From the NCBI GenBank assembly GCA_004519485.1, contig CP038115.1:434001-498000 (forward strand): a DNA stretch of 64,000 nt, read 5' to 3'. The notes below the pieces were generated by a model. That model saw only the letters and a list, made by a program, of their open reading frames with translations, was not told the DNA's origin and did not search any database. Position numbers and translations under genes: made by a program. The first letter of the stretch is position 1; every line of letters begins with the position of its first letter. This document shows, piece after piece, positions 1 to 46,462 of this stretch. Source of the DNA: Nannochloropsis oceanica. Its lineage: Eukaryota; Sar; Eustigmatophyceae; Eustigmatales; Monodopsidaceae.

Positions 1-2867
1 TCTGCCTGCCTGTCGGTGCTAGGACCGTTACTGCAGCATATGCAGACATTTGGCATGTCCCGCCTCCTCGTCTCCCGGCCCTCCCTCCATCCCTTCGTCG
101 TTCCCGCCCTCCACATGACTTTGGATGGAGTCACCCTCCGAGACTTAGAAATCTTCTCGACTCCCTACGGCCTTCCCGGGAGGGAGAAGGGAGATGGGGA
201 GGGCGGGAAGGAGGAAGGGTCATTGTTTTGGTTTTTGAATCAGACGACCACAAACTTTGGGGCCCGGCTGCTGAGGGAGTGGGTGCGGAAGCCATTGTTG
301 AGGAGGGAAGACATCGAGGGGAGGTTGGACACGGTGGACGAGCTGGCCTTCGCCCTCCCTCCCTGCCTGGAGGAGGAGGGAGGGCTGGTGGGGAAATTTT
401 TGAGGAAGGGAAGAAGGAAAGGGGGGAGGGCGGGAGAGAGGGCGGGAGGGAAAGGGTTTCCGGATTTGGGGGCGATGGTGACGGCATTGCACTACCATAA
501 GGTAACACCCAAGAGGCTGCTGCTGCTGCTGCAGACAGTGGAGGCCGTCCTGCTCGCCCTCCCTTCCTCCCGGACAGCGGAAACCGAGATTCATTCATCC
601 TTGCTCCGGGGCCTCTTTCGCTCCCTCCCTCAAACCACCCTCCTACACGATGTGCGGGAATGTTTGTCACTCCTGGACATTTCCGCCACGCAGCAAGAGG
701 ATAAACCCTGCATGTTTACCGATCCGACCTTCTACCCCTCCCTCCATCGGCACCTGGCCCTCTTGCATGACCTGGAGGCGAAGATGAACGAAGAGTTGGG
801 ACGCGCGCAGAGGGAGATGAAAAAGCCCGAGCTAACGTTCCGGACATTACGGACGGGCGTTAGTTCGTGTGTGGAATATTTGATCGAGCTGCCAAGGCGG
901 GAGGCGGGAAGGGTGCCGGGGGAGTGGGTGTTGGTAAGCCAGACGAAGGAGGCGTGCAGGTGAGAAGTCATATTGTTACGATATGGTCTGTTTCCTCACT
1001 GATTTTTCTTGTATATGGTTCATGTGCTTAGTGATTGACAGGTTATTTAATTGGTTGACTGAAATGTTTGTTTATCATGAATAGCAATCGATTCAAGTCT
1101 CACTATTCCATCCTGTCCTTTCCAGCTATGATAATGACAGATTGTGAAGACACTCACCACCCCTCCCTCCTTCCCTCCCTCCCTCCCTTCCTCAGGTACC
1201 ACACTCCCGCGGTGATTTATTTGATGCGTCGGCTCCTCGTGGCCCGGGAGGAGGTTCGGAGGGAGGGCGAGGCGGCTTGGCAGTCGTTTGTGAAGAAGGT
1301 CGATGCGCAATGCGGGGGGGGCATGAAGGAGGTGGTGCAAGTGATGGCCACCCTCGACGCCCTTCTCTCCCTTGCCAGTGTTGCCTCCCGCCCGGGATGG
1401 GTTAGACCGACGTTGGTAGAGGAGGAGGAGGAGGAGGAGGAGGAGGAGGAGGAGGGAAGGAGGGAGGAAGGGAAGGGAGGAGGGATGCCCTTGAAGATTG
1501 ACATTAAGGACGCACGGCATCCAGTGTTGGAGCACTTGCTTCTCAGCACCTCCTCCTCCTCCTCCTCCTCCTCCCCTCCGCCGTCCTTCGTGCCCAACGA
1601 CATCTCTCTCGGGGTGGGGTTGAATGCCCCCGAGACATGTTTGGTAGTGACGGGTCCCAACATGGGTGGAAAGAGCACGTATATTCGCACGGTGGCCCTC
1701 TGTCAACTGCTGGCGCAGATCGGGAGTTATTTGCCGGCGTCGTCGGCGTCGGTGCCGATTTTGAATGGGTGAGGGATTGGGAAGCAAGGAAGCAAGGAGG
1801 GAAGGAGGGAGGGAGGGAGGGAGGGAGGGAGTGAGGGAGGGGGGAGAAAGGGAGGATGTCCAGCTTCAACTTGTCATGTGTGTCAAACTACCCTTTTGTT
1901 AATGTCCCTCTTTCTTGACCGATCATAACAGACCCATTCCCTCCCTCTCTCCCTCCCTCCCTCCCTCAGGATCTACACGCGGATGGGGAGTAATGATGAC
2001 TTGGCTCGAGGCATGTCTACCTTTATGGTGGAGCTCTGGAACGCCGGATTTATATTGAAAAAGGTCCAGGAAGGGGAGAAGGAGGAGGAGGAAGAGGAAG
2101 AAGGGGAGCAGGATATGAAGAAGGAGGGAGGGGCGGTTGGAAGGAGAAGGAGATCGAAGGGAGAATTTGGGATGAGGAGGAGGAGGAGGAGGAGGAGGCA
2201 GAGTTTGGTGATTCTTGATGAGTTGGGAAGGGGAACTGCCACGTATGACGGGATGGCCATCGCAGAGGCCACACTGAAGTATCTTGTCAAGAGGGTGGGC
2301 TGCCCTGTGGTGTTTGTCACGCACTACCCACAGCTGGGGGAGGTAGGGAAGGAGAGAGGAAAGGAAGGGGAGGAGGGGTTGTGGGTGCGAGGAGAGCCCA
2401 AGGTCAAGGCAGGGCATATGGCCTTCGTGCAGGGAGAAGAGGGCGAGAAAGGGGGGGAGGAGGGAGCGGGAAGGAGGATGACGTTTTTGTACAAATTGAC
2501 GGAAGGAGAGGCGGGAAGGAGCTATGGGCTAAATGTGGCGCGAATGGCAGGTATGGACGAGGCGTTGTTAGAGAGGGCGAGGGAGAAGAGTGGTGAATTG
2601 GAGGCACGGTTCGAGGTGATGATGAATAGGGAGGAAGAGGGAGGGAGGGCCGAAAAGGAGGAAAAGGAGGACGAAGAGGAGGAGGACAAAGATGAAGAAG
2701 GGGTGTATGGGCGGTTAGGGGAGGCAGTGAGGACATTAGAGTGGCTGGAGGAGAGTGGGGTGAGTCAGAAGGAGTACGCGAGGAGGCAGAGGGAGGTGCT
2801 GGCGTCCTTGATAGAGCTGCAAGAGGAGGCAAAGAAGGTGGTAATGGGCCAGGATGGAAGGTCGTAG
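1..2867 (+). CDS. MSH3: DNA mismatch repair protein MSH3, C-terminal part (5' end outside window)
   Basis: Exons 1-959, 1196-1768 and 1970-2867 join in frame into about 809 residues ending at TAG 2865-2867. Both introns are GT..AG. The order is the MutS core and lever domains ([25 protein letters not shown], then [11 protein letters not shown], which resembles MSH3 rather than MSH2 or MSH6), the clamp, and the ABC-type ATPase. ATPase motifs are Walker [14 protein letters not shown], the [12 protein letters not shown] segment, Walker [12 protein letters not shown] and the H-loop VTHYPQL. MSH3 pairs with MSH2 as MutSbeta to bind insertion/deletion loops in nuclear DNA. The N-terminal mismatch-binding domain should lie upstream. 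Acidic and arginine-rich low-complexity inserts occur at 2070-2200, between the lever helix and Walker B, and near the C-terminus. Assignment to MSH3 rests on remembered similarity; membership of the MutS family is certain. Confidence 0.9.
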
Positions 2868-4629: not shown

Positions 4630-4990
4630 GAGTACCAAAAGGAAGAAGGGTGGGAGGAGGAAAAGGAAAAAGGCGATAAGTAGACGGGAAGACGATGGGC
4701 GTGGACGCGGAATGGTTGCTTCGGTTTATGCTGCTCCTATGCTCTTTGTGTTGTGCATATAAGGGTTTTGTAAGTATGGGGAGGGAGTCTCGAGTTGGCG
4801 ATGATGCCTTGAAGGTTGCGGGTACCTTCAATTTGCGGTCCCAGAGTCCGCTTTCACACAAGCACATAGGCATCCTCTGTCTGCCCATGTACATTGGGCA
4901 CCCTGCTAGCGCGCTTTAGTGCTCTATTCAGTACCGCTTGAGCTCCTAACCTCCCCTCCCCTTCCTGCCTCCAATTTACACAGGCAAACC
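4630..4990. promoter_or_regulatory. Divergent intergenic promoter region
   Basis: 361 bases separate the two start codons of divergently transcribed genes, so both promoters and 5' leaders must lie here. The part next to the methyltransferase is purine-rich. I see no unambiguous TATA box. Confidence 0.4.
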
Positions 4991-7249
4991 ATGGCGCCAC
5001 CCCTCCAACCAGCCTCTGGTCCGTCTCTACCACCACCACCACCACTCCCTTCCGAATCAGCAGAAGAGCGGCAAGCAAGGATAGCCTTAATCCAAGCCAA
5101 ATGGGCATCCCATCGGGCTCCGCCACCACAACACGCCGCTCCCTCCTCCCTACCTGCCTTCTCCTCCTCCTCACGTCTGGCCCACCGCCTCACCATAATC
5201 CTGACCACCAGCCCCGTCCGTTCCAATCCCGACACCCTTCTCCTCCGTCGTGTCGTCCACTCCTTCTCCCTGGTCCCCGGCCTGTCTCAGTGTCCTAAAA
5301 TCGTCGTCTGTGATGGCTTTCGACTCGCCTCCCAACAAAGTGGGAGTCGGTACAAAAAGGGAAAGATTCTCCAAGAGGAAGTGAGCAACTACCACGCTTT
5401 TATCGAGAACGTCAAACAGTTGGCAGAGGATGGGGAGGGAGGGTTCAAAGACATGCGCGTGGAAAAGCTAGAGGAGAGGATGGGCTTTGCAGGGGCAGTG
5501 CATAGGGCATGTTGTGCCTGGGTGGAGACACCATTTGTGCTGGTGGTGCAGCATGATCGTTTGTTTATGACCAGGTAAGATAGGGAGGGGGGGAGGGAGG
5601 GAGGGAAGGAGGAAGGGCGTCGCGCCCCTGGAATCGGTTTGAATGCATCCTTCTTGTCGGCTTTCGCCCTCCCTCCCTCCCTCCTTTTCCAGATGCCTCG
5701 AATGCTGTGTGGGCGTGATTGAGGCACTGAGGAAATAGAAGATGAAGGGGGGGACAAACGCTGGCTCATACACTCCTCCTTTCCCCCCTCTTTCCCTCCC
5801 TTCCTCCCTCCTGCCCCTGTCAGCGTGGATCTAGCTGCGGCTCTGGATGTGATGGAGGCCCGGCCCACGCAAGTCCGTTACATCGGCCTTCGCACCGCCA
5901 AGACGAAGCACTACGTGGAGGAGAAGGAGGAGATGCTCGTGCACACATTTAATGGGGAGGACGAGAAAAGGGGGGAGGAGGCTGGAAGTCGTGGCCGCCG
6001 GGGCAACGCCCTCGCTGCGAGCGGACTAGAAAGGGGGGAAGGGAGGACGGGCGACACCTCTCCCAACAGTAGCGGCGGCAGCAGCAGCAGCGGCAGAAGC
6101 AGCGGCAGCAGCAGTAGTAGAACCCCAACTGTACTTCCTCTTTGCGCCTCCAGGAGTACCGACATTAGCACCTCTCCCTCCCCCGCTCCTCCTCCCTCCT
6201 CCTCATCAGAAGTCCGTCTCCGCAAGCTCTGGTTCTGGTATGATACTACCCACCTCTGTCACACTTGCTTCTATCAACAACTTTTCGAAGGCTTCACCTA
6301 CGCGACCTTCCTCCCTTCCTCCCTCCCACCCTCCTTGCCGTATTCGAGGGTGTCGAATCGATTTCGCGTGAATTTTGAGGGGGGGGCTAGGGAAGAAAGA
6401 AGAAGGCGAGGGGGAGGGAGGGGGGGAAGAGGGGGAGGAATTGGTGGTGGTGGAGAGGAGAACGGAAGAGAAGAGGGAGAAAGAGGAGGGGACGAAGCAA
6501 GAGGAGAACGAAGCAAGGCTAAAGAAGAACGGAACCCTGGCCCTCCCTTTATCTCCCCCTCTTCCTCCTCCTTCTCCTTCGATCTGGGCAGCCTTACCGA
6601 CGAGGTTCTGACGTCCCTCACCCGCGGGGCGCTCCTCGGGGAGGAGGCGAAAGAGCGACGACTCTCTCAGTGCATCGTGAAGAAAGGTCATTTCATCGAG
6701 GATACGTTTGGGCAGTTTATGCTGACGCACATCCAAACGGCGATGAGACGGGAAGGGAAAAAGGCCGCAGATGAGGTACACAAATTGTATGGGGCTTGGT
6801 TGCTCGTCACGCCAGCAGCAGCAACACCACCACCCCCACCACCACCACCAGCAGCACCAGCAGCACCAGCACCAGCAGCAATAGTGCCTGCAGGGACAGA
6901 GGAGAGAGACAAGAAAGGAAAGGATGAGGAGGGGGAGGAGGAAGAGGAAGAGGAGGCAGTGGTCGGTCACTTGGACGGAAGGGACTTTCTGACGGAGGAG
7001 CAGTTGGTAGGGATGGGCTTGGAGCCCCGGATGAGGAAGGGGGCTAAAATCTTCGTGAGTGAGAGTCAATTGAGGCGCGATGAGATGGCCTGGAAGGCAC
7101 GGGAAGCGGTGAAGAAAAAAGAGATGACGGTGAACCATGAGTGTATCATGTCGTGGGGCGGAAGAGATGAGGGGATGGAACAGGTGGAGGAGGAGGGAGT
7201 GGAGGAGGAAGGGGGGGTGTTGAGGTGCTTGGGATTGGAGGACGGGTGA
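4991..7249 (+). CDS. Uncharacterised algal protein, glycosyltransferase-like N-terminal half
   Basis: Exons 4991-5574 and 5824-7249 (GTAAGA donor, CCTGTCAG acceptor) give 669 residues. The ATG follows GCAAACC and fits a start context. Exon 1 holds LTIILTTSPVRSNPDT, KIVVCDGFRLA and ETPFVLVVQHDRLFM. These resemble the hydrophobic strand plus late acidic pair of GT-A-type nucleotide-sugar enzymes. Exon 2 continues with VRYIGLRT, LWFWYDTTHLCHTCFYQQLF and KKGHFIEDTFGQFMLTHI, blocks I recall from unannotated algal and diatom proteins. Long serine, glycine/arginine, proline/alanine and glutamate tracts separate the conserved blocks. The enzyme class is a guess from fold-like motifs. An alternative acceptor, TTTTCCAG at about 5686-5693, could give a longer second exon but is not needed to keep the frame. 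Confidence 0.7.
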
Positions 7250-8130
7250 ACGGGAAAAATATATCGAAAAAAAGAAAGTGATGTAAATATTTTGTAAACG
7301 AAATGTAAATGGGGACCGGAAAAGTGTGTTGGCGATGGGAGGGGAGAGCAGAGAATGGATCTCAACCATAGTCACAGACAATTTGTGAGTCCGTAGATCT
7401 TGCTTTTTATATATAACTGTTCTTGTCTCGGTACATGGTTTGACTAGACGCCTGATATCTGCTCGCAGCCCAAACACATTCATTGAACCCTCTCGAGCTT
7501 GGTGACAGGGGCCATATGGGGTCCATGGGTTGTATTGGGAATGTCTTTCTTGTTCGTGTCAGGCCGGCCCTGGCGTTGCAGTGCCCCAAATAGAGGCATC
7601 AACAAACCCCTCCCCTCCTCCTTCGTATCCTTTGAACTCCCTTTGGCGTTCAAGCACGCCCTCGTCGTTGAAGGCTTCCCCACCCCCTTCCTTCCCTCGC
7701 CGCTCATGTTCCAAACGGCTCTCGGATTTATGGTTGTATTTGAATCACTTTTCCGCACCATTTTTTTAAAGGGGGGGCGGGGGTCCCTCGCAAGGACGTT
7801 CAAGTAAATCGACCCCGTTCGCAGGCCTTTTTTGGGTACCAAAGCCCTTTGGTCTTGGTGCTCGGTATTATTATGAATTTGGATTGGATGTGGAGGGAAA
7901 TGGTTTTGCAAGACGGCAGGCCCGTGCTTCCCCAAAAGCACAGCTGAAGGCTTGCTTCCCTCTCGCTGCTTCGGCAACCGAATGTGGCTCATCCACGCGA
8001 GTGCTGTGCCTTCCCCTTCAATAAAATACATGGCTTTCCCCCGTCTCATACATTTTCTTACCCTTCTCTACGACAGCACACACACCCGGCACTCAAACCA
8101 AACCGTCCACAAGCGACACCCTGCCCTAGC
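7250..8130. other. Intergenic region with an unsupported minus-strand open frame
   Basis: This 881-base space follows the gene at 4991 and precedes the membrane protein at 8131. The minus strand carries an ATG-started frame at 8049-7480 (189 codons, not low-complexity). No motif is recognisable and the opposite strand is open over much of the same stretch, so I do not call it. The region 7760-7790 has T and G homopolymers. It probably contains the 3' end of one gene and the promoter of the next. Confidence 0.4.
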
Positions 8131-10625
8131 ATGGCCCAGACGTCCGGGTCACCTGCTTCTGCTGCCTTCGACCGCCGAGCAACAGTCACGGCGGCCTCTA
8201 CGACCGCGACAGCCCACTATGAATCCACCCATCCCCACCACCGCATTGCGAATGTGGCCTTGGGGCAGACGGCAGCAGCAGTGATTGCCTCGTCCTTCGT
8301 TTCCCCCGCCATGACCATTATCGACATGTCCATGTACGTTCTCCTTGTGTGTATGTGGCGCCCCTAGAATTTTCGTAAAGAACGTTCCTGAGACGACCAG
8401 CTTGGACGGGATGGGCTGAAGGGATAGGGAAAAGGGTTTAAGTCTCACGCAGTGGTGAGTAAATAATAGTCCACGAGGGGGAGGTTTGTCGGGAGTGTGC
8501 TTTCCATTGTGGCCCCCAAGCTTTTATCTATCGGGAAAATGCAAATGCTGGCACATGCCTTTGGTGAGGCCGAGACTGGCATGCATTAGGGAGAGATGGG
8601 GGGAGGGAGGGAAGGTTAGGAGAGGGGGAGGGCACTACATTACTGCCTTGCGCCTTGTGGTGTGGGATGACAAGGTCTCCCTTTGGTCTGGTTGCGGACA
8701 AAGGATATGGATGAAAAGGGAGGAAAGTGGGCCGCTAAAGGCAGAAGAAAGCGAGTACGGTAAAGAGAATGCGGGCATTTATGTATATGCAACATGCATT
8801 CCATCCACGGATTTCCACCATATTAATCCATCCTAACCTTCCCTCCCTCCCTCCCTCCCTCCCTCCCTCCCTCCCTCCCTCCCTTCCCTCTCTCCTGCCC
8901 TCCATGCAGCATTCGCGCGCAGTTCAGCAAGTCCTCTATCAGCTCAGCCTTGCGCGGCACCACCGCAGACCTGCTGAGCGGCCGGATGCGATGGAGCCCT
9001 GCTCTGGGGATTATGAGCACTGTGTACACCAGGTGGGGAGTGAGGAACGGAGGGAAGGAGGGAGGGAGGGAGGGACGAGGAAGGGAGGGAGGGATGAGGG
9101 AGGGAGGAAGGGAGGGGCCCGTTGATGACGTCTCTCAACCCCATTTTACTTTCTCTCCCTCCCTCCCTCCCATCCCGTCGATGTACAAATCCAAATCGAA
9201 CTTCTTGTTCACTCACCCCTCCCTCCCTCCCTCCCTCCCTCCCTCAGCACCTACCTGACCGCAAATTACACCACGGCCCTGTGCCACGAGCTGGACATTG
9301 ACTACAAGATACCCACGGCCGTGGCTACGTCCCTGGTCAACATCACGTACGTGGAGGGAGGGAGGGAGGGAGGGAGGGAGGGAGGGAGGGAGGGAGGGAG
9401 GGAGGGAGGGAGATGTATATGCGCGGCGGAGTTACTTCACACAAATGTTGCCTCATAAAGTCTTCCTTATTTCCCTCCCTCCTTCCCTCCCTCCCTCCCT
9501 CCCTCCCTAACCTCCTCCTCAGTGCCATCGCTTACAAGGACAGGGAATTCGCGCGTATGTGCTCTAAGGTACGCTGAGGAAAATAGCAAGAGAATAGGGG
9601 CAGGGAGGGAATGGAGGAGGGAGGGAAATAGGAAACATAAGGGCTCACACCCAACGAGACATTCCGGAAAATCATTTCTCCTTTCAACCCTCCCTCCCTC
9701 CTTCCCTCCCTACAGGCCCCGACCACCTTTCCGTTATCCTCGTACGGCCTCTTCGCCATGCGCGACGGCTTAACGGTCACTTCATCGTTTGTGCTCAAGG
9801 TAGGAGGAAGGAAGGGAGGGAGGGAGGGAGAGAAAGAGGAGGGGAGGGGGGGAGGGAGAAAGAGCAGTATGACAACGATGGGACTGAAGCATCCTCCTTC
9901 TCTGTCTCCCCTCCTCCTTCTCTCCCCACCTCCCTTCTCTCGAGAAATTAAAATACCTTCCAAACCCACCTCATCGACCTCAATGCAACCCCTCCCTCCC
10001 TCCCTCCCTCCCTCCCTCCCTCCCTCCCGCCCTTTCACCCTCAGAACACCGTCAAGGACCACCTCATCGACGAACACAACCTCGAGGCCCATAATGCCGA
10101 CCTGGCCGCCTCCTTCGCCGTGCCCATGCTCGCGCAGCTTTTCTCCACCCCCCTCCATGTACGTTAAAAAACCTTGTGATTCCCTTTAGCCTCGCGCACA
10201 CATCCTCCCTCCCTCCCTCCCTTCCTTCCTTCCTCCCTCCCTCCTTTCCCTCTTTTTATTGCGTGGACAGACCTCGCTTCCTCTACTGCAACTCCCTCGT
10301 CCTCGTTCTTCTCCTCGCCCTCCTCACCCCCTCCTTCCCTCCCTCCCTCCCTCCCTCCCTCCCTCCCTCCCTCCCTCCACCGGTCCTACAGATCCTCTCC
10401 CTGGACATCTACTCGCACCCGCAGTCGCCATTTCGCATGCGAATGAAGGAGGTAATGAAGGGCTATTCGTCCGTATGCTCGGGGAGGGTGATGAGGATCA
10501 TCCCAGCCTTCGGCATAGGGGGCTACCTGAATGATATTGTCAAGGAGGGATTTGAGGAGGAGCAGGTCGGGAGAAGGGATGGAAAGGCTGTGCGTGTGCC
10601 AGCCACGGGAGAGAGGAAGAATTGA
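8131..10625 (+). CDS. Multi-pass membrane protein of an uncharacterised carrier-like family, copy A
   Basis: Seven exons, 8131-8333, 8910-9032, 9248-9346, 9523-9568, 9716-9799, 10045-10158 and 10392-10625, join in frame to 300 residues. Conserved blocks run RIANVALGQTAAAVIASSFV, MTIIDMSI, the DYKIPTAVATSLVNITAIAY segment, PLSSYGLFAMRDGLTVTSSF, AASFAVPMLAQLFSTPLH and GRVMRIIPAFGIGGYLND. They match, block for block, the opposite-strand gene at 15774-17856. I recall similar unnamed proteins in fungi and algae, often noted as mitochondrial or carrier-like; function and compartment are unknown. Repeated small-residue hydrophobic segments ending in charged turns suggest about six membrane passes. 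Several introns carry (GGGA)n after the donor and (CCCT)n before the acceptor. Copy A lacks the roughly 100-residue N-terminal extension of copy B. Confidence 0.8.
8839..8885. repeat. (CCCT)n tract in intron 1 of copy A
   Basis: A nearly perfect CCCT tetranucleotide run lies about 25 bases upstream of the acceptor of exon 2 (8910). It is typical of the tracts before 3' splice sites throughout this window. The G-strand can form tightly stacked G-quadruplexes. Confidence 0.85.
9353..9411. repeat. (GGGA)n tract right after a 5' splice site
   Basis: About 15 uninterrupted GGGA units start a few bases after the GTACGT donor at 9347. The matching CCCT-rich tract of the same intron lies at 9473-9508, before the acceptor at 9521-9522. 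The two are complementary and could pair in the transcript. Confidence 0.85.
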
Positions 10626-10844
10626 GCTCTCACGCATGAGGAGAAGAGAGGCAGGAATGAGGGAGGGAGGGAGGGAATGCCTTGCATCGATTATAGTGAA
10701 AGAAGTAGTTGTAGTTGTTGTAAGAAGTTTAGATCTGGCCCACCGAGAATACAGCGAAGGAGGGAGGAAGGGAGAGTGGGAGGGGGGTAGAGGAGTGGTC
10801 GCCTCTATTGTGATGAAGAGAAAGCACACACCAGCCCAGCACGC

Positions 10845-10910
10845 ATATACATAAATGTATATACATAAACATATATATACATAAACATATATATACATTC
10901 ACGTTCACAT
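10845..10910. repeat. AT-rich tandem repeat, unit about TATACATAAACATA
   Basis: Consecutive near-identical units of ATACATAAAC/ATATATATAC follow each other just downstream of copy A. No open frame or element is associated. Confidence 0.7.
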
Positions 10911-12209
10911 GCACACACCCACACACACTTTGTCATGCCGGAGTCGTTTCGGGAAGGAAGAGGAGGAAGAGAAAGAAACGTGAGGGTTTGCACAAAACGA
11001 GAGAATTTGAGAGCGGGATGATGGACGAACGGCAGATGGAGAGTGTAAAGAGAGAGGGGAAGATGATGGTGATGAGTGCCTACAAAAACGCCCACGGGGG
11101 TGACTTGACCCCCCCCAAAAAAGGTAGAGAAAACAAAGCAGGTCCAAGGTGACTAACAAGAAGCGGTAGTGTATGAGAAGGACGAAGAAACCTTGTGATT
11201 GGGTGCTCGTTGAGGAGAGAAGAAGGGAAGGGAGGAGGGAAGGAAGGAAGGAGGGAGGGTGCAAGCGAAATGATTAAAAATGTAGGTATGGACTGACTGA
11301 TACACATCGTTATTTCTGAGATGATTACATAATACATATATATGTAGGTATATTCAAACAATGGCTTGTACGACAAGTGTGATAACGCGACAAATATAGT
11401 TTCCAACAGTGATGACAGTCGAAAAGAGATTGGAAGAATGAAGCGCGGAGGTGGCGGCGGCAGCGGGAGTGGCCACAGGAAGGGTCTGAAAAAAATAGAA
11501 GAAATGTATACATTGAGAAACAGCAATCACTCAATTGAATCCAGTGCTTCTGTCGGCCATGGCTTCATTATTCACTATCCCCTGTTGACCCCTCTTGAGC
11601 TTCCATGGTATCGTCGAAAGAACCCCAAAAGATGCTTAAAATGCTCATTCAAATTCTGAGCTCCGAGATTAACATGTCAAACTTATTCAATTTTTTTGTA
11701 AAGGTTTGTACACAGCGTGTCTCAAGGTGAAATAAAAATTTTCGGGGAGATAATTAGAGGTATACATATGTAGGCCTGTCGATCTTCGTTTGTTACTTCG
11801 AGGCTGGCCTTCACTTTTTCCCTCTTCCCCCCACTCGCAACGTCATTTCGAAAGGACGAAATGACAAAGGTTTTGCCAACTCTCGATGAGGTTCGTGCGG
11901 TATGCATGCAGAAAATATAAGCGAAGCCCTTCCCTTCTCAAGGTGAATGGTTGTAAGTTGAGAGGTGACAGGGTGAGTGACAGGATGGTAGGATGGAAGG
12001 AACAAAGATTACAGGGAAGGGGAAATATGAAGGCGGCATGGTGGTATGTACATAAATTTAGTGCTTTGTTTCTTTTTATTTAGTATTTATCCTCTACGCT
12101 AAAGGTACCATATTATTGCTATGGATGTGCTCTGGTCAAAGTTCGCATTAGGTCATCGCTGCTCTTTATTTTGAGACATTTACGGATGCTGCGACAGGAT
12201 ATCTGTCGC

Positions 12210-15773: not shown

Positions 15774-17856
15774 TTATGCCGTCTTCCGGTGCGTCGGAGG
15801 CCCGCGGTCCATGTGAAGAAACATGTCTTCTTCGTCGTCCTCGAAGGCCTCCTTCACCATCTGTCAGTAGTAATGAGGAGTCGATGAGGAAGGAGGGGGA
15901 TAGGAAAGAGTGAGTGTGTTGTGTATGTATGTGTGTGTGTTGTGTATGTATGTGTACGTGTGGGATGTTTGTTTAAGTGCTCCTTTGTTTTGTCACAAGT
16001 CTTCCCTCACGTGTCCTTCACCCTATCCTTTTATCTCTGGCACCGATGCTCCTCATCTGTGGGCTCCATACGGTGACAGTGTTCAGCGACACACGCTACC
16101 TCTCCCTCCCTCCCTCCCTCCCTCCCTCCCTCCCACGCACATCGTTCACCACACCGCCCACGCCAAACGCCGGAATGATCCGCATAACACGGCCCGTGAC
16201 CACATTCCTGTACCCTCTAGCAATCTCCGCGACGCGGCTGCCCCAGGTGGCCTCTGAGGGGGAGAGAAGGGAGGAAGGAAAGGAGGAAAGGAGGGAGGGA
16301 GGGTTGTGTGTGTGTGTGTGTGTGTGAAAGAGAGAGAGAAAACAATTAGAGGAAGACAAATTTCTGCCTCACGTGATAAGTGACAGCCGGTTAAATCCCG
16401 CTATCACCATTGAGGCATAGGCACATCCGAAAGAGGGAGGAGGGGGGTAGGGAGATTAAGAGAGTCACACGCAAGAAAAGGCATGAAAATCCCACTCCTT
16501 CCCTCCCTCTCTCCTGCCCTCCCTCCCAACGCCCCCTGCTTACCCTTCCGCAAGTAGAGGTCCATGGACAAGATGTGGAGGGGAGACGAAGGAATTTGCG
16601 CGAGCATAGGCACGGCGAAAGACGCCATGAGGTCGGCCGTGCTGGAGCGCAGGTTGTAGTCTTCCACCAGATGATCACGGACGGTGTTCTGAGGGAGGGA
16701 AGGAGGGAAGGAGGGAAGGAGGGAAGGAGTGTGGTAGGGAAGGAGTGTGGGAGGGAGGGATGGAATGATCAACGGAACGTCCTACAAGCAGGAGTGGCAA
16801 GGAGGGAGGGGAGGGAGGGGAAAGGGGGGCTGATTCTAATCATTATGTAACCTTGAGGACAAACGTGGAGGTGACGGTCAACCCATCGCGCAGTGCAAAC
16901 AGGACGTAGGACGACAAGGGGAAGGAGCTTGGGGCCTTGCTCATCATCCGTGCGAACGCCTGGTCCTTGGCCGCCACGCCGACGATGTTGGTGACCGAAG
17001 TAGCAATGGCGGTGGGAATCTTGTAATCAATTCCATTTTCCTGATGGAGGGGAGGGAGGGGAGGAGGGAGGGAGGGAGGTCTACGTGAGAAGAATGTCCC
17101 AACAGTAAAGGAGAAACGACTTAAATGGTGATTCAGGTGACCTATACCCCAGAACCACCCTCCCTCCCTCCCTCCCTCCCTCCCTCCCTCCCTTACCATG
17201 CACCAGGCCTCCGTGCCATTGGCTGCCATATAGGTACTAAAGTACACCCCTCCCATGATCTTGGTAGCCGGGAACCATTTGGCCCGACCGGCAATTAAAT
17301 CACCCGCGGTCTTTTTGACGGCTTGCCCCACCCCTATTTTTTCTACTTGGCTTTTCATGATGGCAAGATCGATGATTGTGATCATAGGGCTGACGATAGA
17401 GGCAGCCACGATGGCAGAAGTGGTGGCGCCGAGCGCGGCGTTCGCGGGGTGCGAGAGACCTGTCTTAGGGAGGTGCAACTCATGGGGAAGATGGATGCCG
17501 GCGTCGGTGATAACGTGGACGCCGGTGGAAGCCATGGACACCACCGTGTTGTTGCGTTCGAGCACTGTTCGGGTTTCCTCTGCAATGGTCGTCAATTTGC
17601 GAGTGAGTTGGAATTTGGTTTCGTTGGCGTAGAGGGTAATTTTCCGAGCGAGCGAGGGTTGGCTTCCGTTGCCTTGGCGGTGCTCGGTGGCGGTCGCGAC
17701 TTGGCGGGGGTTAGGGATATTTGTGGTGGACGTGGGTGCTTTGGTGTCGGAGATTGTGGAGGGGACAGCATTGCTTTTCGTGGTGGGCGGAGCGGGGACG
17801 GAAGGGGTAGGGGTCGCCGAGGTGGGAGAGGGTGCCTTGGAACCGCCTTGACCCAT
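15774..17856 (-). CDS. Multi-pass membrane protein of the same uncharacterised family, copy B
   Basis: Exons 17856-17197, 17040-16852, 16688-16544, 16253-16141 and 15860-15774 join in frame to 397 residues. Blocks ANAALGATTSAIVAASIVSP, MITIIDLAIM, NGIDYKIPTAIATSVTNIVG, PLSSYVLFALRDGLTVTSTF, MASFAVPMLAQIPSSPLHIL and GRVMRIIPAFGVGGVVND align with copy A (8131-10625) along its whole length. Copy B has a polar N-terminal extension of about 100 residues beginning MGQGGS, a plausible N-myristoylation start. Its C-terminus is acidic (FEDDEEDMF). The intron between PLH and ILS of copy A is absent here. Copy B also has introns after MDLYLRK and after GGVVND where copy A reads on. Function is unknown; the pair is inverted around PAQR. 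Confidence 0.82.
15901..15962. repeat. TG/TA-rich repeat in the last intron of copy B
   Basis: GTGTGTGTTGTGTATGTATG-type units are repeated inside the intron between exons 4 and 5 (15861-16140). Confidence 0.6.
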
Positions 17857-19725: not shown

Positions 19726-20631
19726 GACTGCGTCGCTTCTCTTGCTGCCTCGGTCGTTCGCTTATTTGTGCTTGTCGTGGTAGTGGTGGATCGCTTGCCC
19801 CCGCCCGTGTGATCTGATGTGCGCCTCTTTCTCTGGCTTGGTCCTATGCGTGTCTCGTGTGAATGTGTGAGGAGAAAGAAGTCAGGCAAATAAACGAGCA
19901 TCACCTTCAGCTTCACGAAATTTACACAGCTACACAAAATGCAAGCAGGCTGGGGAAATTGACTACCCAATTGAGGCATGATCATCGATTCCATTGGCGA
20001 CTTATGGGGTGGAAGGCAGCAGACAGACAGACCTCTGTCGTGACAAACCTGTCCGCAAACCACACAACCACATCGCAAAACGATGGGAGACAATGATGTG
20101 ATTGTGGAGAGTTTACTTTCCCATTTGCCTCCATTACCTCGCGCTTATCTTCCGCCTTCCCCGTCCCTCACACAGCACAGTTCTGACGCCAAGAAAGGAG
20201 ACGGGAGGGGAGGTTGATTTGGTTGACTGGTCATACATTTGAACACATAATGATTCACAGGAAACTGAAAGATTGCATCCATAATGATGAGTAAGGAGTC
20301 TTTATGACGCGAGTAGTGGCGACCGGAGAGTTTTTTTCTTCATTATTGCCCCTCGTTCTCGTGTAGCGTTCCTCTCCTTCTCCTCTGCCATCTCTTCCTT
20401 ATCTCCTCTTTCCGGTCTGATTATTCCCATGAATCGTAGTTTGCAGTCAGCTCTTCTTCCTGCCACTACCCCTCTCCTGGCGCATTTCCTTCCTTGAAAT
20501 AGTCTTTTTCCCTTCCTCTCACTCTCGGTGTTTCTCGCTCTCCTCTTCCATGCCACGTTCCATGCACCCTTGTCGTTCATTCTTCTCTCATTTTTTGCTT
20601 TTAGTGCTACCGCTGCCACTGCTGCTACTGC

Positions 20632-20671
<40 letters not shown>

Positions 20672-21657: not shown

Positions 21658-21698
<41 letters not shown>

Positions 21699-28888: not shown

Positions 28889-31800
28889 ATGATCATCAGG
28901 ACCCTCCCATCCTTCCTCGTGGGCTGCGCTCTCCTTCTCGTCTTTCTTCCGATCGGCATGCAGGCATTCCAGCCCGCCCTCCGCACCTGCGGGAGCCGCC
29001 TTTCTTCAACCTTCTCCTCTTCCTCATCCCTCGCTGCCCTTACTCGCCTCTCTGCTGCCACCGCATCAATTCAACCCCAAGCAGAACGATCCATCGTTTG
29101 GTTTACTTCCGGTGACCTCCGCCTGCACGACAATGAAGCCCTCTCTTCCTCCCTCGCCTCCTCCTCCTCCTGTATCCCGCTCTTCATTTTCGACCCCTCC
29201 TTCCTCTCCACCCTCGCCCCCCATCTCCTCCACCTCTACCTCCTGGCCATTGCCGATCTTCGCAACACCCTCTCCTCCAACCTTATCACGCGCATCGGGC
29301 CCGTCGAACAAATTCTGCCCGCCGTCATGGAGGAAACCTCGGCCTCCTCCCTCTGGGTCTATGAGGACATAACCGAGAACCAACGTGCACTCGTGCACCG
29401 AGGCCTGTCCTCTCTCTCCCCCTCCTCCTCCCCTTCCCTCAAAATCAAGAAATGGACCACCCGTCTCCGTTCATCCATTACCGGTGGCACCGTGGGCAAC
29501 AATTGGGAAAAAGACTACTTGCCCGCCATTAAGGGCAGGCCCATCGACCCCCCCCTTCCCCCTCCCTCACTCCCTCCCAACTCGTTCTCGGATGCCATCA
29601 CCGACAAGGGCCGTCTCCCTTCCTTTGAAGAACTGTTGGAATTGGCCTATGGTCATGAAGAAGATGTCAGCCCTTCCTCCCTCCCTTCCTCCCTTCCGCC
29701 CTCCTCCGCCGCTGCTATCAAGCAAGCCCGGGTGCATGCCGCAAGGGAAGAATACTGGACGCCTACGTACTACCCGCACGAGGCAGGAAACGAGGGTGGG
29801 ATGGAGGGAGGGGGGGGGGAGTCCTTGGCGTTGAAGTGGTTGAAGGAATACATGGAGGTGGGGCCCGTGGTCTTTGGAGAGCGGTATTTGCCGTCGTCAG
29901 GGGAGGGGTTGGAGAGGCAGGTCATGCGAAGGTTGATCGCTGCAAAAGGTGTGTCTAGAGGAGGGAGGGAGGGAGGGAGGGAAGGAAGAGAATAGGATAC
30001 GGGTCTGGTTGATGCCCGCCTCGAGCTCAAGCTGGCCACGACTGACGGCCTCCTCCCTCCCTCCCTCCCTCCACCTCTTTCCTCCTCCCTTCCTCCCTTC
30101 CTCCACCTCTTTCCTCCTCCCTTCCTCCCTTCCTCCCTCTTTCTCTACCAGGCTACGAAGGCCTCTTCGACGGGGAAGTCTTCACACGCGCCTTCTCCCC
30201 CCTTCTTGCCATCGGTGCCATCTCTCCCCGGTACCTCGCCTCCCTCCTCCCCGCCCTCCCCCCCTCCTTCCCCTTCTTCCTCCTGGATAAAGCGACCAAG
30301 AATGCGGCCATGGTAAAGGAGGTGGTAGAGCGGCGAGAGTGGCACCAGATCCTTGCGGAACGGGACGTCGTCCATTTCCCTTTACCCGAGACGGAGGCGC
30401 TCACATTTAAATATTGGCGGTTTCACGGTAACGGCCTGTGGGGGGAAAAAAGGAGGGTAGTAGTGGCTGCTGGGAGGGGAGGGAAAGAAAGAAAGAGTAT
30501 GATGACGCGCGGGAGGTTTGAAAAAGGGAGAGTAGGAGGGAGCAGGAGGTAGGGGAGGGGAGAACGAGGGATCTCTACGTCTTGTTCTCTTTTACTGTCA
30601 GAATGCTCACCGCTTTTTCCCTTTCTCTTTTCCTCTTCCTTCTCCCTCCCTCCCTCCCTCCCTTCCTAGGGCATAATGTCCGCTATGCCGTGTCGCGGGT
30701 CCACGCGCATGGCACTAGCGAGGGAGGGAAGGAGGGCACAGCCGAGGGGAACAAAAGTGGGGGTAATGGTATCAAGGGAGACGGTGATGTGCCGACGTTG
30801 TTGCTAGTGCACGGTTTCGGAGCCAGCTCCGATCAGTGGTCAAAATGCTTCGAGGCTCTCTCGAGCTTGGCCCGGAAAGACCCGGCGACGTTCGGGAAGG
30901 GCTTCAGGATCTTTGCCCTTGACCTCCTTGGGTTTGGACACAGCGAGAAGCCGAGCGTGACGTACACGCAGTATTTGTGGCAAGACCAAGTGCGAGATTT
31001 CGCCCTGGAGGTGGTGCAGAGCCCCTTCTTTATTGCAGGGAACTCGATTGGGGGCTTCACGGCCGCGAGCGTGGCGGCGGACATTGGGCCCATGTGCCAG
31101 GGGTTGATTTTGGTGAATACGGCGGGGAAGGTCGTGTCTCCGGAGGTGAGAGTATTGGGTTGGGAAGGGAGGGAAAGGGGGGAAGGAGGGAGGGGAGCGT
31201 GGAGGGAGAAGCTTGAGCCGTTGCTTGGGGGCTGTTTCATTTGATGGTACTGCAAGTGGAGGAATAGATGAAATCGATGGCATAATTCTTACTATTTGCA
31301 CTACTGAGGGGCTCCAGAAAAGAGAGTGTAGATTCACCTAGAAAACAGGAAACGATTTTTGTCTCATTTCCTAGCCGTTCATCCTCAAATCTCCACGACT
31401 AGGAATACGCCGCCGAGCTCGCCAGTCGCGAAGGACGCACAGTGGAGGAAAGCACGCGATCTCTCTCCCTCCCTTCCTTCTCAGGTCCGCCAAAAGTCGT
31501 GCTGACGGCCTTTTCCGCCGGCCTCTTCTGGTACCTCCAGCCCCGGGTTGAAAAAATCTGCAAAGACCTGTACCGCCATTCCCCGCAGGAAGTGGGTCCT
31601 CGCCTTGTGAACAATATTATTCGGGATAGCTGCGACCCGGGGGCGTTGGGCGTCTTTGCGTCGGGAGGGCGTCTACCGGTCCCTCGACCCACGAACGAGT
31701 TGATGGCCAAATTCGGGTAGGTGCCTCCATGCTGTCTCCCTCCCGCCCTCCCCACCTCCCTCCCACCCTGCGGCCTATGTTTGCGTGTAGGACATTATGA

Positions 31801-35730: not shown

Positions 35731-38700
35731 ATGGTCAAACCCCGCGACGACCCGACGCTCCAGCATGCCCTCTCCCTGTTCCAGGACGCTTTTGGGAGCG
35801 AGCCTGACATAGCTGCCTTCGCCCCGGGACGAGTCAATCTCATTGGTGCGTTCATGAGGAGTAGAGAAAGAGAAGAGAATGAGAGATGGAAGAGAGGAAA
35901 GGGGGGAAAAGAGAATGTGGTGGAAAACCAGTTTTCTTGCCATCCCGTTCGTTCTAAACCTCATCTCCCCCTCTCTCCCTCCATTCCTCCCATCTTGCCC
36001 CCGTAGGTGAGCACACCGACTACAACGAAGGTTTCGTCTTTCCTCTTGCTCTGGATTTGCGCACGTTCGTCGTAGGCCGTGGTTCTTTGCTCGTCCGTCC
36101 CCCCAATCAGAAGGTGCCACTGACGCAGTGTCGAGTCACCTCTGAGAGCCATCAGGGCATCGTGTCCTTCGTCGCTGACAAAGTAGGTTACAGAAAGAAG
36201 AAGTCAAAGAGAAAACAGCAGAATCAGAAAAATCAGAAGAAGAAGAAGAGGAATCAGAAGAAGAAAATCTGGAGGGGGGGAGAGGAGGAGAAGAAGGGCA
36301 AGCGCCGGGGGAAGAGGCGGGTAATGCACGCAGGGAAAAAAGGCGCGAAGTGATTGATTGTAACTCGGTCTCGTTGAGACTCAATAGAAGAGAGAGAGAG
36401 AGGATGATGGAACCCGCCACCATCTTCATTCGATTGTCACTCACTTACCCTTCCACATACCTCCGTCACTTCCACCCTTCCCTCCCTTCCTCCCTCCCCA
36501 GGGCCTGGCCCCCGGCGAGCCCAAGTGGGTCAATTACGTCAAGGGCGTCGTGGCCGAGTACCTCAAGGGTAAGGGACGAAGAGAGAGAGGCTAAAAGAAG
36601 AGGCACAAAACATCACAAGATGCCGTCATCGATTTTCATTCCTCCCTCTCGACCCTCCCTTCCTCCCTCCCTCCCTTCCTCCCTCAGACGTGCCGCAGGG
36701 GAAGTACCTGGTGTTCGAAGCCGCAATTGCGTCGAGCGTTCCCCTGGGCTCCGGCCTCTCCTCCTCCGCCTCCTTGGAGGTCTCTGTCGCCACCTTCCTC
36801 GAGCAGGTGCTTGGCACCACCCCCGGGAAGGTCCAGAAAGCCTTGCGATGTCAGGTACCCCCTCCCTCCCTCCCTCCCTCCCTCCCTCCCTCTTTCCTTT
36901 TCTTCTTTTTTTCCTTCCTTCCTCCCTCCCTTTTCTTTTTCGCTTGCTCTCTTCTTTCCCACCGGCCTCCTTTCCCACCGGCCTCCTTCGACATATTCGT
37001 ATACACACGCAACACATCCACACATTCATGCACCTCCCTCCCTCCCTCCCTCCCTTCCTTCCTCCCTCCCTCTTCTCGACAGAGCGCGGAGCATAAATTC
37101 GCCCACGTGCCCTGCGGGATCATGGATCAGTTTGTGTCGGCAATGGGGAGGACGGGCAAGGTGAAGGAGGGAAGAAGGCAGGGAGGGAGGGGAGGAATCC
37201 GATGATGACGATTGAGGAAAGAAGATCGACCGACAGAGTTGGGAAGTGACCCTCCCTCCCCCCCTCCCTCCTCTTCCTTTCTCCCTCCGTCCAGGTGCTC
37301 CTCTTGGACTGTCAGTCTCAGCAAGAGACGCTCGTTCCTTTGGCCGATCCTGACCTAGTCATCCTCGTGACCAACTCCAAGGTGAGGGAGGGAGGGAGGG
37401 AGGGAGGGAGGGAGGGGTCAAAAAAGGGGACGGGTCATGCTGGAGTATTACTTGTTTGTTAAAATTCGTCTGTTTAGACCCCATCTCCGAATCGCCTCCC
37501 GCGTGCATGTCCGGCTCCACCAACCTCCCTCCCTCCCTCCCTCCCTCGCTCCCTCCCTCGCTCAGGTAAAGCACAGTCTTGGCAGCAGCGAGTACCCCGT
37601 GCGTGTGACCCAGTGCAAAGCCGCCGTGGAAGGTCTCAGGAAAAAATACCCGGAAATCAAAAGCTTGCGAGGGGCCTCCATGGAGCAGGTAGGTGTTTCC
37701 CTCCCTCCCTCCCTCCCTCCCTCCCTCCTTTCCTTATTCCTTTCTGAACATGCATGCTTTTTTGTTTGGTCCCTTTCTCCCATCCTTACCCTCCTCACCC
37801 GCCCACCCCCTCCCTCCCTCCCTCCCTCCCTCCCTTCCTCCCTCCCTCCCAGCTGGACTCCATCCGGAACGACCTCCCCGAGCTCGTCTACAAGCGCGCC
37901 CGTCACGTGGTCACGGAGGACATCCGCACTTTGCGCTGTGTCAAGGCCCTCAAGAATAAAGATTACCAAGCAGCCGGACAGGCCATGGTCGAATCTCACG
38001 AGAGCCTTAGGGACGACTATGAGGTAGGAATGCCCCTTCACCCTCCCTCCCTCCCTCCCTCCCTCCCTTCCTTCCTTCCTTTCCTCCCTCCCTCCCTTCC
38101 TCCCTCCCTCCCTTCCTTCCTTCCTTCCTTCCTTCCTTCCGAGCACTGGAGTTCCCATCTTCATTCCTCACTGCTGTCGTCGCGCCCGCCCTCCCTCCCT
38201 CGCTCCCTCCCTCGCTCCCTCCCCCCCTTCCAAGGTCTCATGCGACGAACTGGACTTCTTGGTCGCGGAGGCCATGAAGGTACCCGGAGTGCTGGGCAGC
38301 CGTATGACTGGTGGAGGTTTCGGAGGGTACGTTTCCCCTCCCTCCCCCCCTCCCTCCCTCCCTCCCTCCCACTTTTCCCTTTCTCCTTCCCTCCTTCCCT
38401 CCCTCCCTCCCCCTTCCTTTGTCGCAGGAAGGTCAGCTGGCTATTCTTCCTTCATTCCCCTCTTTTACTCCCTCCCTCCCTCCCTCCCTCCCTCCCTATC
38501 CCTTTCAGGTGCACCGTCACGCTCGTCAGGAAACAAGCGGCGGGGCTGGCAGCGATGAACATTAAAGCAGCCTACAGGGCACGCTTCGGGGTAGAAGCCG
38601 AGACCTTTGTCACCACTCCTTCCACAGGCGCCAGTGTCGTGGACTTGAAGAAGGACGAGGAGGGAGGGAGGGGCGGGGGGAGGAAGGGAGGAAGGGCGGG

Positions 38701-38785: not shown

Positions 38786-39474
38786 GGAGGGAGGGAGGGA
38801 GGGAGGGAGGGAGGGAGGGAGAGAGGGAGGGAGAGATGTACTGTGTTACTGTGTGTGGTTCTGTTGTCTGCGTATCGGGATAAAGAGATGAAAGGAAAGT
38901 TGGAAGGAGGGAGGGAGGGAGGGAGGGCGGGAGGGAAGCAAAGGTGGAGGGGGAGATGCCAGGAATGGAAGAAGGAAAAGAAAAGGAGGAAGATGAGGAC
39001 GAGGACGAGGACGAGGACGAGGAGGGGGGGGGGCGCTCAAAGATCTTAGCAAGAACAACAAAATGAAGGATCCCTGCCTCTCTTCTCTCCTTTCTTTTTG
39101 GAGAAGGAAAGAGCCTTATGTCAATACAATTTCTTTTCCTCCATTCTCTCTCATGGGTTCTCTTTTTCCTTTATTCAACACGCTATGACTGTCGTAATAA
39201 TTGCTTCTCTTCTTCTTCTTCGGCTGTTTTTCTATATCCAGCTAATGTTTGCAGTCTTGTTACTCGGTCTCTTCCCCTACCCCATCATTCCTCCCTTCTC
39301 TTGTTTCCCCCTTTCTCTTCCTGCGCTTTCCGCCCCCGCTCGTTCTCTCTTCTCCTTCTCCCCTCGTCGTTACTCTCTCATTTCATCTTTTCCCTCCTCT
39401 TCATTGCACTCAGAACAAGACTACCCAATACACGCTTCCCTCGCTCCCTCCCTCCCTCCCTCCTTCTCTTCCCC
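38786..39474. other. Intergenic, tail to tail
   Basis: Right after the galactokinase stop lies a (GGGA)n run (38787-38834), then further purine-rich repeats to 39029. Pyrimidine-rich sequence follows up to the stop of the opposite-strand gene. I see no gene; both strands' open frames reflect composition. Confidence 0.55.
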
Positions 39475-45925: not shown

Positions 45926-46462
45926 GCTGAGGGAGGGTGGGAGGGAGGGAAAGAGGAAGAGGGTGTGGTGGTTTGGGGTGGTTTTGGTGTGAGTGTATGG
46001 ATGTGCTTGAGATCGCTCTTTTTGCTTTTTCTCCGTCTCTTTTTGCCAGGAAGAGGGAGGGAGGTGGAGGCAGGGGAATAGGAGGGAGGGAGCCTATTGG
46101 GCGGAGGCAGACGTAGTGGGGAACGAACACCACGGCAACAACATGAACAACAAAAAGGAAGAAAAGAAGGAAGAAGACGACGACGAAGAGAACGAAATAT
46201 GACGATGTGGGTACGCTGTCTTTACCCTAACACTTGTTAAGGTGTGGCAGATTTAGGAGTTCAGGTTTTATTATTTTGGGGCTCCATAATTGTGAGTACT
46301 GTCTCATCTACCACGGCGAAATTTGTTGATTCGACAGGGAAAACGGGAGCACTGGATATTGAAATTTACAGCCTGTTTTCACTTCTGCCTTACTCATGCG
46401 GTGTCTTCTTGGTGCCACATTTTTGGGCTTCGACCCTCGTGAGATTCTGATTCGATGGTGTA
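45926..46462. other. Intergenic, tail to tail
   Basis: 537 bases between the eL21 stop and the DNAAF11 stop on the other strand. The eL21 side is GGGA-rich; the rest is unique. No gene is seen. Confidence 0.55.

What the first reader, a model, noticed from the sequence alone, without database searches (positions are those of the whole stretch)
9033..10044. Complementary GGGA and CCCT tracts bracket the same introns
Many introns start with (GGGA)n just after the donor and end with (CCCT)n just before the acceptor. Examples are 1769-1969, 5575-5823, 9033-9247, 9347-9522, 9569-9715, 9800-10044, 16254-16543, 17041-17196, 29949-30151, 37382-37565 and 61651-61821. The two tracts are reverse complements, so in pre-mRNA they can pair over tens of bases and bring the splice sites together. 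The G tract can also fold as a G-quadruplex. Other introns have only the 3' CCCT tract, or have CCCT after the donor, so the pairing is not universal. This may be a genome-wide splice-definition device or simply spread of one microsatellite into intron edges.
Basis: partly seen in the sequence, partly recalled or inferred. Interest (0 to 1): 0.78.

Follow-up and report, generated by a model that had tools for sequence, protein, structure and literature searches.

The report
Repeat tracts flanking an alga's exons
In a small oil-producing alga, one four-letter DNA repeat often lies beside the coding pieces of genes, as CCCT before them and GGGA after them; this looks like a strand-specific sequence preference rather than a hairpin that ties the two ends of an intron together.

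Summary
The window is Nannochloropsis oceanica nuclear DNA (longest contig has the same length as in the published assembly). In detail: all 11 examples are GT..AG, and 10 of 11 match an independent gene model exactly. In 176 supported introns, GGGA tracts cluster after donors (55) and CCCT tracts before acceptors (84); the mirror cases number 22 and 4. Pairing as the organising principle is not supported. GGGA..CCCT is in excess (36 vs 26 expected), but so is CCCT..CCCT, which cannot pair (18 vs 10.5); ends of neighbouring introns match as often as own ends; swapped ends fold equally well; CCCT..GGGA, which could pair, is 0 of 176. A small own-intron length correlation remains (r 0.19). GGGA also follows stop codons, where nothing is spliced: 25 of 82 gene models, CCCT 3. 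Best reading: coding segments have strand-polar flanks, C-rich before and G-rich after, filled by the genome's main microsatellite. CCCT probably serves as polypyrimidine tract and GGGA as a G-run element. No RNA data were available; function is untested.

The parts
9033..9247 (+). intron, 5'GGGA and 3'CCCT tracts
   Evidence: gene model and tract counts 39/29 bp
9347..9522 (+). intron, 5'GGGA (15 perfect units at 9353-9412) and 3'CCCT
   Evidence: not in the filtered set because of the 46-nt downstream exon
9569..9715 (+). intron, 5'GGGA and 3'CCCT
   Evidence: not in the filtered set because of the 46-nt upstream exon
9800..10044 (+). intron, 5'GGGA and 3'CCCT; same position (FVLK|NTV, phase 0) as the minus-strand intron 16689-16851 of the paralogue
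10159..10391 (+). next intron of the same gene, CCCT at both ends
1769..1969 (+). intron, 5'GGGA and 3'CCCT
5575..5823 (+). intron, 5'GGGA and 3'CCCT
16254..16543 (-). intron of the paralogue, 5'GGGA and 3'CCCT
16689..16851 (-). intron of the paralogue, CCCT at both ends; homologous in position to 9800-10044
17041..17196 (-). intron of the paralogue, 5'GGGA and 3'CCCT
29949..30151 (+). intron, 5'GGGA and short 3'CCCT
36855..37082 (+). galactokinase-gene intron, CCCT at both ends
37161..37294 (+). galactokinase-gene intron, 5'GGGA and 3'CCCT
37382..37565 (+). galactokinase-gene intron, 5'GGGA and 3'CCCT
37689..37852 (+). galactokinase-gene intron, CCCT at both ends
38024..38234 (+). galactokinase-gene intron, CCCT at both ends
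38327..38508 (+). galactokinase-gene intron, CCCT at both ends
38786..38835 (+). 50 nt after the galactokinase-gene stop codon, with a sense GGGA tract
45926..45975 (+). 50 nt after the stop codon of ribosomal protein eL21, with a sense GGGA tract
   Evidence: C-terminus checked

Best explanation
The two tracts are not one device. Shown here: in this alga the noncoding sequence touching a coding segment is strand-polar, C/pyrimidine-rich on the sense strand before it (strongly at acceptors, weakly at start codons) and G/purine-rich after it (at donors and at stop codons). The genome's dominant microsatellite, (GGGA)n/(CCCT)n, sits in those flanks in the matching orientation, and the two ends of an intron carry it nearly independently apart from clustering by gene. 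Inferred: before acceptors the CCCT array is the polypyrimidine tract, read by the U2AF large-subunit homologue that the genome appears to encode and perhaps by C-binding proteins. After donors the GGGA array acts as a G-run splicing enhancer. After stop codons the same G-rich element acts on 3'-end formation or polymerase pausing, or reflects a strand bias. Slippage lengthens the arrays. Complementarity of the two intron ends is a by-product; hairpins may form, but link wrong ends as readily as right ones.
For: Polarity in 176 introns: 5'GGGA 55, 3'CCCT 84, 5'CCCT 22, 3'GGGA 4; CCCT..GGGA 0. CCCT..CCCT association OR 6.0 vs 2.9 for GGGA..CCCT; own ends match no more often than neighbours' ends. 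Own vs swapped duplex energy alike. GGGA after stops 25/82 vs CCCT 3/82; 13/42 vs 1/42 when models with a weak last exon or a possible donor near the stop are removed; C-termini of three such genes (eL21, NIP7, fibrillarin) reach the ends of solved homologues to within a few residues. Tract-free flanks keep the polarity: after stops GGG 35.7 vs CCC 3.8 per kb (54 of 82 flanks), before ATG 11.0 vs 33.7 (76 of 82). Of 107 introns (of 176) with a pyrimidine run of 12 or more in the last 60 nt, 78 contain a CCCT 8-mer. U2AF large-subunit-like match at C23:436221-437264, 302.5 bits. The one intron position shared by the two window paralogues keeps 3'CCCT but not 5'GGGA. Precedent: GGG and CCC elements as separate enhancers in a GC-rich human intron with a weak pyrimidine tract, where a G:C stem was considered and a mutant spoke against it (PMC2481429, passages).
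Against: A within-gene correlation of 5'GGGA and own 3'CCCT length remains in three nested sets (r 0.19, 0.19, 0.20; p 0.021, 0.011, 0.011); correlations between different introns are of like size but not the same ones in each set. Over all introns own ends pair better than ends swapped genome-wide (-29.7 vs -27.3; sd of the swapped means 0.95), though not better than ends swapped within genes (p 0.15). C-rich pyrimidine runs are unlikely U2AF65 sites by published work (PMC2481429 passage). The U2AF match is below the family cut-off of 310.3 bits as read in one frame. Introns with 5'GGGA do not have weaker donors. Pattern counts over the whole genome depend on donor type: AGGTACG is followed by CCCT more often than by GGGA (199 vs 69 forward-strand sites), and for AGGTRAGT GGGA is commoner upstream (47) than downstream (25), perhaps because that donor word arises inside purine tracts. 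No transcript data; my models hold 379 introns in 90 genes, against 2.87 exons per gene in print.
Confidence: 0.6

Rival explanations
1. Pairing device: GGGA and CCCT arms of the same intron form a stem that brings donor and acceptor together and defines the intron, as complementary repeats are reported to do in fish.
For: Raw same-intron excess (36 vs 26.2); within-gene length correlation of own arms r about 0.19; very stable predicted duplexes, mean -67 kcal/mol for 36 introns; published precedent (passage in PMC7404189).
Against: CCCT..CCCT equally or more enriched; neighbours' ends match as often; CCCT..GGGA absent; own ends fold no better than swapped; in the showcase gene intron 4's GGGA pairs 0.96 with intron 3's CCCT across a 46-nt exon and intron 3's GGGA 0.70 with intron 6's CCCT, and only intron 5 mostly with its own; paired introns are not longer; GGGA after stop codons.
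Confidence: 0.12
2. Neutral microsatellite with a filter: arrays arise anywhere by slippage; coding sequence removes them, purines are not tolerated before acceptors, and sense CCCT is removed elsewhere in transcripts because it makes cryptic acceptors. No array has a function.
For: The repeat is everywhere: 14,296 forward and 14,400 reverse overlapping matches of (GGGA)5 in 29.26 Mb; simple and low-complexity repeats are 8.7% of another N. oceanica assembly (PMC3499364 passage); perfect arrays point to ongoing slippage; 3'GGGA is below the mid-intron level (2/145 vs 4/77).
Against: A filter alone cannot raise GGGA next to donors and stops to 51/145 and 25/82 against 4/77 mid-intron, or CCCT before acceptors to 77/145 against 10/77; the enrichment fades within about 60 nt; tract-free flanks show the same polarity.
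Confidence: 0.2
3. Transcription-linked mark: sense GGGA after coding segments forms quadruplexes or R-loops that slow the polymerase at exon ends and gene ends; splicing and 3'-end formation profit from the pause.
For: Same tract, orientation and decay after donors and stops; sense G4 motif 43/176 at 5' ends vs 3/176 at 3' ends; G-rich pause sites with R-loops beyond poly(A) signals in human cells (PMC3145960 passages).
Against: Known pause sites lie beyond the poly(A) signal, these within about 50 nt of the stop; no data on pausing, R-loops or poly(A) sites in this alga.
Confidence: 0.06
4. Introner-like mobile element with GGGA/TCCC terminal repeats that created the introns.
For: The two window paralogues share one intron position out of six and four in the models compared, so introns were gained or lost.
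Against: One 17-bp match among 344 introns once purine and pyrimidine runs were masked; ends occur in other combinations.
Confidence: 0.02

Closest known systems
[quoted passage not shown] PMC2481429, passages read)
   Same: GGG and C-rich runs near splice sites, each working as its own element; a G:C stem considered and spoken against by a mutant
   Different: There upstream of the pyrimidine tract; here long arrays of one tetranucleotide just inside donor and acceptor, and GGGA also after stop codons; no functional test here
Intron-bridging complementary AC/GT repeats in fish and lamprey (Lin et al.; known here only from the passage in PMC7404189)
   Same: Complementary simple repeats able to form a stable stem across an intron
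   Different: Here no clear same-intron preference beyond gene-level clustering, a non-pairing combination equally associated, mirror order absent, tracts also outside introns
Yeast intron stems shortening the branch point distance (RPS17B; PMC2536676, abstract and outline read)
   Same: Complementary segments near both ends of an intron
   Different: There tested with mutants; here short introns (median about 185 nt) and paired introns not longer
Motif pairs flanking human exons (PMC2945786, abstract, outline and one passage read)
   Same: Intronic motifs on both sides of exons within 100 nt; those authors found no complementarity between them
   Different: There many motifs and a co-occurrence statistic across exons; here one repeat with strand polarity
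G-rich pause and termination elements (MAZ, beta-actin; PMC3145960, passages read)
   Same: G-rich sense sequence near gene ends
   Different: There beyond the poly(A) signal; here close to the stop codon and after donors

Membership tests
Intron-bridging complementary repeats | complementary repeats at opposite ends of the same intron beyond independent expectation | tested here: inconclusive
   36 vs 26.2, but likewise for the non-pairing combination and for neighbours; within-gene shuffles of counts p 0.10-0.15; within-gene length correlation r 0.19, p 0.02
Intron-bridging complementary repeats | own ends pair better than swapped ends | tested here: not met
   36 introns p 0.24; same-gene swap of 158 introns p 0.15; better only than genome-wide swaps
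Intron-bridging complementary repeats | mirror order (CCCT..GGGA), equally able to pair, also used | tested here: not met
   0 of 176, 0 of 58 in the window; my own criterion, not one taken from a paper
Intron-bridging complementary repeats | splicing depends on the stem | not testable with these tools
   no RNA data or constructs
Polypyrimidine tract | sense pyrimidine run just upstream of the acceptor | tested here: met
   run of 12 or more in the last 60 nt in 107/176 introns, 78 with a CCCT 8-mer; tract end a median 13 nt from the acceptor; branch points not mapped
Polypyrimidine tract | bound by the U2AF large subunit | not testable with these tools
   a homologue-like match exists (302.5 bits, cut-off 310.3); binding to CCCU arrays unknown
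G-run intronic splicing enhancer | G runs enriched just inside the donor | tested here: met
   GGGA 51/145 in the first 60 nt vs 4/77 mid-intron
G-run intronic splicing enhancer | compensates weak donors | tested here: not met
   U1 score 16.4 with vs 16.2 without a 5' tract, p 0.49; leaving out +6, 15.9 vs 15.0, p 0.02 in the other direction
G-run intronic splicing enhancer | raises splicing when present | not testable with these tools
   no RNA data; note GGGA also after stop codons, 25/82
Introner element | introns share internal sequence | tested here: not met
   one 17-bp match among 344 masked introns
Tetranucleotide microsatellite | perfect head-to-tail arrays | tested here: met
   15 perfect units at 9353-9412; up to 14 and 11 units in the intron halves sampled

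The most novel reading that the evidence does not exclude
In this alga coding-segment boundaries of different kinds carry the same strand mark made from one microsatellite: CCCT on the sense strand before the segment and GGGA after it, whether the boundary is a splice site or a stop codon. The mark could be read while the gene is transcribed (G-run binding, quadruplex or R-loop pausing), so that exon ends and gene ends share one signal and a slippage-prone repeat has become a general coding-end signal. A small contribution of own-intron pairing on top of it is not excluded.
Probability: 0.2. Interest if true: 0.75.

Novelty: new variant of a known kind. Interest (0 to 1): 0.42.

Why it matters
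If the polarity is functional, one slippage-prone tetranucleotide supplies most long pyrimidine tracts and the G-run elements of a whole genome, so splice signals would gain and lose length at microsatellite rates; that can be tested by comparing strains. The same G-rich mark after donors and after stop codons raises the question whether exon ends and gene ends are read by one factor. N. oceanica is a workhorse for lipid engineering, and the result says which intron features a designer should keep. It also shows that complementarity between repeat-rich intron ends can arise from two independent strand preferences and must be tested against non-pairing combinations, neighbours and swapped ends.

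Tried and rejected
Weak donors compensated by GGGA: not seen (that script stopped with an error in its last print-outs, after the figures used). Introner origin: rejected (an earlier search with the standard low-complexity filter gave 1738 hits, which I read as low-complexity matches). Whole-genome donor patterns: AGGTRAGT is a poor probe because it arises inside purine tracts and is only 7 of 176 donors; AGGTACG shows CCCT downstream enriched (199 vs 22 upstream) and GGGA less so (69 vs 28); I took forward counts (donor first) or reverse counts (tract first) as one per donor, as the full list shows; the lists are capped. A first strict intron set of 59 was too small for the association tests. 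Longer paired introns, as a distance-shortening stem would suggest: medians 181.5 both, 179 neither. In one search the first paralogue was translated one base early and its printed protein is out of frame; the shared junction was read. Annotated tRNAs and Rfam families: none in the window at the default thresholds.

Full report
What the window is. The window's genome holds 29,264,788 bases in 32 contigs, the first of 1,670,642 bases. The published Nannochloropsis oceanica assembly has 29,303,273 bases in 32 pseudochromosomes, the longest of 1,670,642 bases (PMC6610115, passages). I take it to be that assembly; the total differs by 38 kb. The (GGGA)5 word occurs 14,296 times forward and 14,400 times reverse, overlaps counted, so the repeat is common and balanced between strands as a whole.

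Gene models. A self-trained hidden Markov gene finder, with purine and pyrimidine runs of 14 or more neutral in the coding score and with splice-site models that end at position +6 and at -5, gave 90 genes and 379 introns. Checks: the model of the gene at 15774-17856 shows the same 397 residues as NocV09_01500670, and the gene at about 8131-10626 is 85% identical to an N. salina protein; the gene at 35731-38785 aligns with human galactokinase. My models contain more introns per gene than the published annotation and sometimes fuse neighbouring genes (for example 4776-11489). I therefore used a filtered set of 176 of the 379 introns, in 58 genes: coding log-odds above 4 on both sides, donor and acceptor score thresholds, 60-600 nt.

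The observation. All 11 named introns are as described. In the filtered set GGGA 8-mers cover 16-17% of positions 10-30 after the donor and CCCT 8-mers 24% of positions 10-30 before the acceptor, falling to a few per cent beyond 60-70 nt; other tetranucleotides tested (GGGT, CCCA, GGGC, GGAA) stay at 3% or less in every bin. With a threshold of 8 bp in the outer 70 nt, the counts are 5'GGGA 55, 3'CCCT 84, 5'CCCT 22, 3'GGGA 4.

Is it pairing? Same-intron GGGA..CCCT is more frequent than independent expectation (36 vs 26.2, p 0.002). But CCCT..CCCT is too (18 vs 10.5, p 0.001), and 3'CCCT follows a lone 5'CCCT in 17/21 introns and a lone 5'GGGA in 35/54. The order CCCT..GGGA, which is just as complementary, occurs in none of 176. 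Tract-bearing introns cluster in genes (same-gene pairs 67 vs 38.7 expected for 5'GGGA, 167 vs 90.5 for 3'CCCT, 23 vs 6.0 for 5'CCCT). In 118 pairs of neighbouring filtered introns of one gene, 5'GGGA of one and 3'CCCT of the other coincide 29 and 33 times, own ends 32 and 31 times; within-gene shuffles give p 0.10-0.15 at three thresholds. Duplex energies of own and swapped ends agree. Against this, the correlation of own tract lengths within genes is small but present in three nested sets (r 0.19, 0.19, 0.20; p 0.021, 0.011, 0.011). Correlations between different introns reach the same size, but across the exon in one set (r 0.26, p 0.007) and with the next intron in the other two (r 0.19 and 0.24). 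I read this as patchiness below the gene level, but a weak own-intron effect is not excluded.

Folding. In the model of 8840-10420 the GGGA arm of intron 2 (9033-9247) pairs 0.58 with the CCCT of intron 1 and 0.40 with its own. The arm of intron 3 (9347-9522) pairs 0.70 with intron 6 and 0.01 with its own; that of intron 4 (9569-9715) 0.96 with intron 3, across the 46-nt exon; that of intron 5 (9800-10044) 0.62 with its own and 0.33 with intron 4. In strictly adjacent introns, CCCT before and GGGA after an exon occur in 25 pairs with a median exon of 134 nt, shorter than the median own-pair intron of 181.5 nt. If such stems formed freely they would loop out exons as easily as introns. The two window paralogues share one intron position. 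There the plus-strand copy (9800-10044) has GGGA and CCCT, the minus-strand copy (16689-16851) CCCT at both ends: the 3' tract is kept, the complementary pair is not.

Beyond introns. The same GGGA tract, in the same orientation and with the same fade-out over about 50 nt, follows stop codons: 25 of 82 complete gene models against 3 with CCCT (p 3e-5). It is 19/59 against 3/59 with strong last exons, and 13/42 against 1/42 when a possible donor near the stop is also excluded. Single-exon genes show it too, 4/12 against 1/12. Three such proteins, eL21, NIP7 and fibrillarin, align with solved homologues to within a few residues of their predicted C-termini, so these stops are not missed donors. 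Before start codons CCCT leads 5/82 to 1/82, a small count. Flanks without any tract keep the polarity (GGG 35.7 vs CCC 3.8 per kb after 54 stops; 11.0 vs 33.7 before 76 starts). The tracts therefore follow a general rule of this genome, pyrimidine/C before and purine/G after coding segments, and are not a feature of introns alone.

Mechanism. Before acceptors I take the CCCT array to be the polypyrimidine tract: 78 of the 107 introns with a long pyrimidine run near the acceptor have it, and a U2AF large-subunit-like gene is present. C-rich runs are unlikely U2AF65 sites in human work, and there GGG and CCC elements help such introns as separate enhancers; a predicted G:C stem was spoken against by a mutant that removes it and splices normally (PMC2481429, passages). 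This is the closest match for the GGGA arrays after donors. It does not explain the arrays after stops, for which G-rich pause or 3'-end elements are a lead (PMC3145960, passages). Which of these steps is real is not shown here.

Known or new. I found no account of this polarity in Nannochloropsis in the listings or in the passages read of PMC6610115, PMC3499364, PMC12702839 and PMC8570151; these are limited searches of one library.

Noticed in passing
window 38786-38835 and 45926-45975; L001-L028: Sense GGGA tracts directly after stop codons, 25 of 82 gene models against 3 with CCCT.
   Followed up: yes
window 8131-10626 (+) and 15774-17856 (-): Two diverged paralogues on opposite strands, six and four introns in the models, one shared position; further related pieces lie at C4:1299435-1300398 of the genome. 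Intron gain or loss between them could be dated.
   Followed up: partly
window 54145-57700 and other predicted proteins: Predicted proteins carry [10 protein letters not shown] and PSLPPSLPP stretches, the in-frame translation of the same repeat. Some may be misread introns, others real coding arrays; 204 and 116 of 2743 predicted coding 60-mers hold a GGGA or CCCT tract.
   Followed up: no
whole genome, donor word AGGTACG: Donors with C at +4 are followed by CCCT more often than GGGA (199 vs 69 forward sites); in the filtered introns C at +4 is 64% with 5'CCCT and 18% with 5'GGGA. Donor sequence and flanking tract are correlated; unexplained.
   Followed up: partly
upstream of start codons in L001-L028 and window: The 60 nt before ATG are C-rich. 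Sister eustigmatophytes use spliced-leader trans-splicing (PMC8570151, abstract and passages), so some of these stretches may be trans-splice acceptors; not tested.
   Followed up: no
window 20588-25468 (-): Predicted 1401-residue protein made largely of long Ser, Gly, Gln and Ala runs coded by trinucleotide repeats.
   Followed up: no
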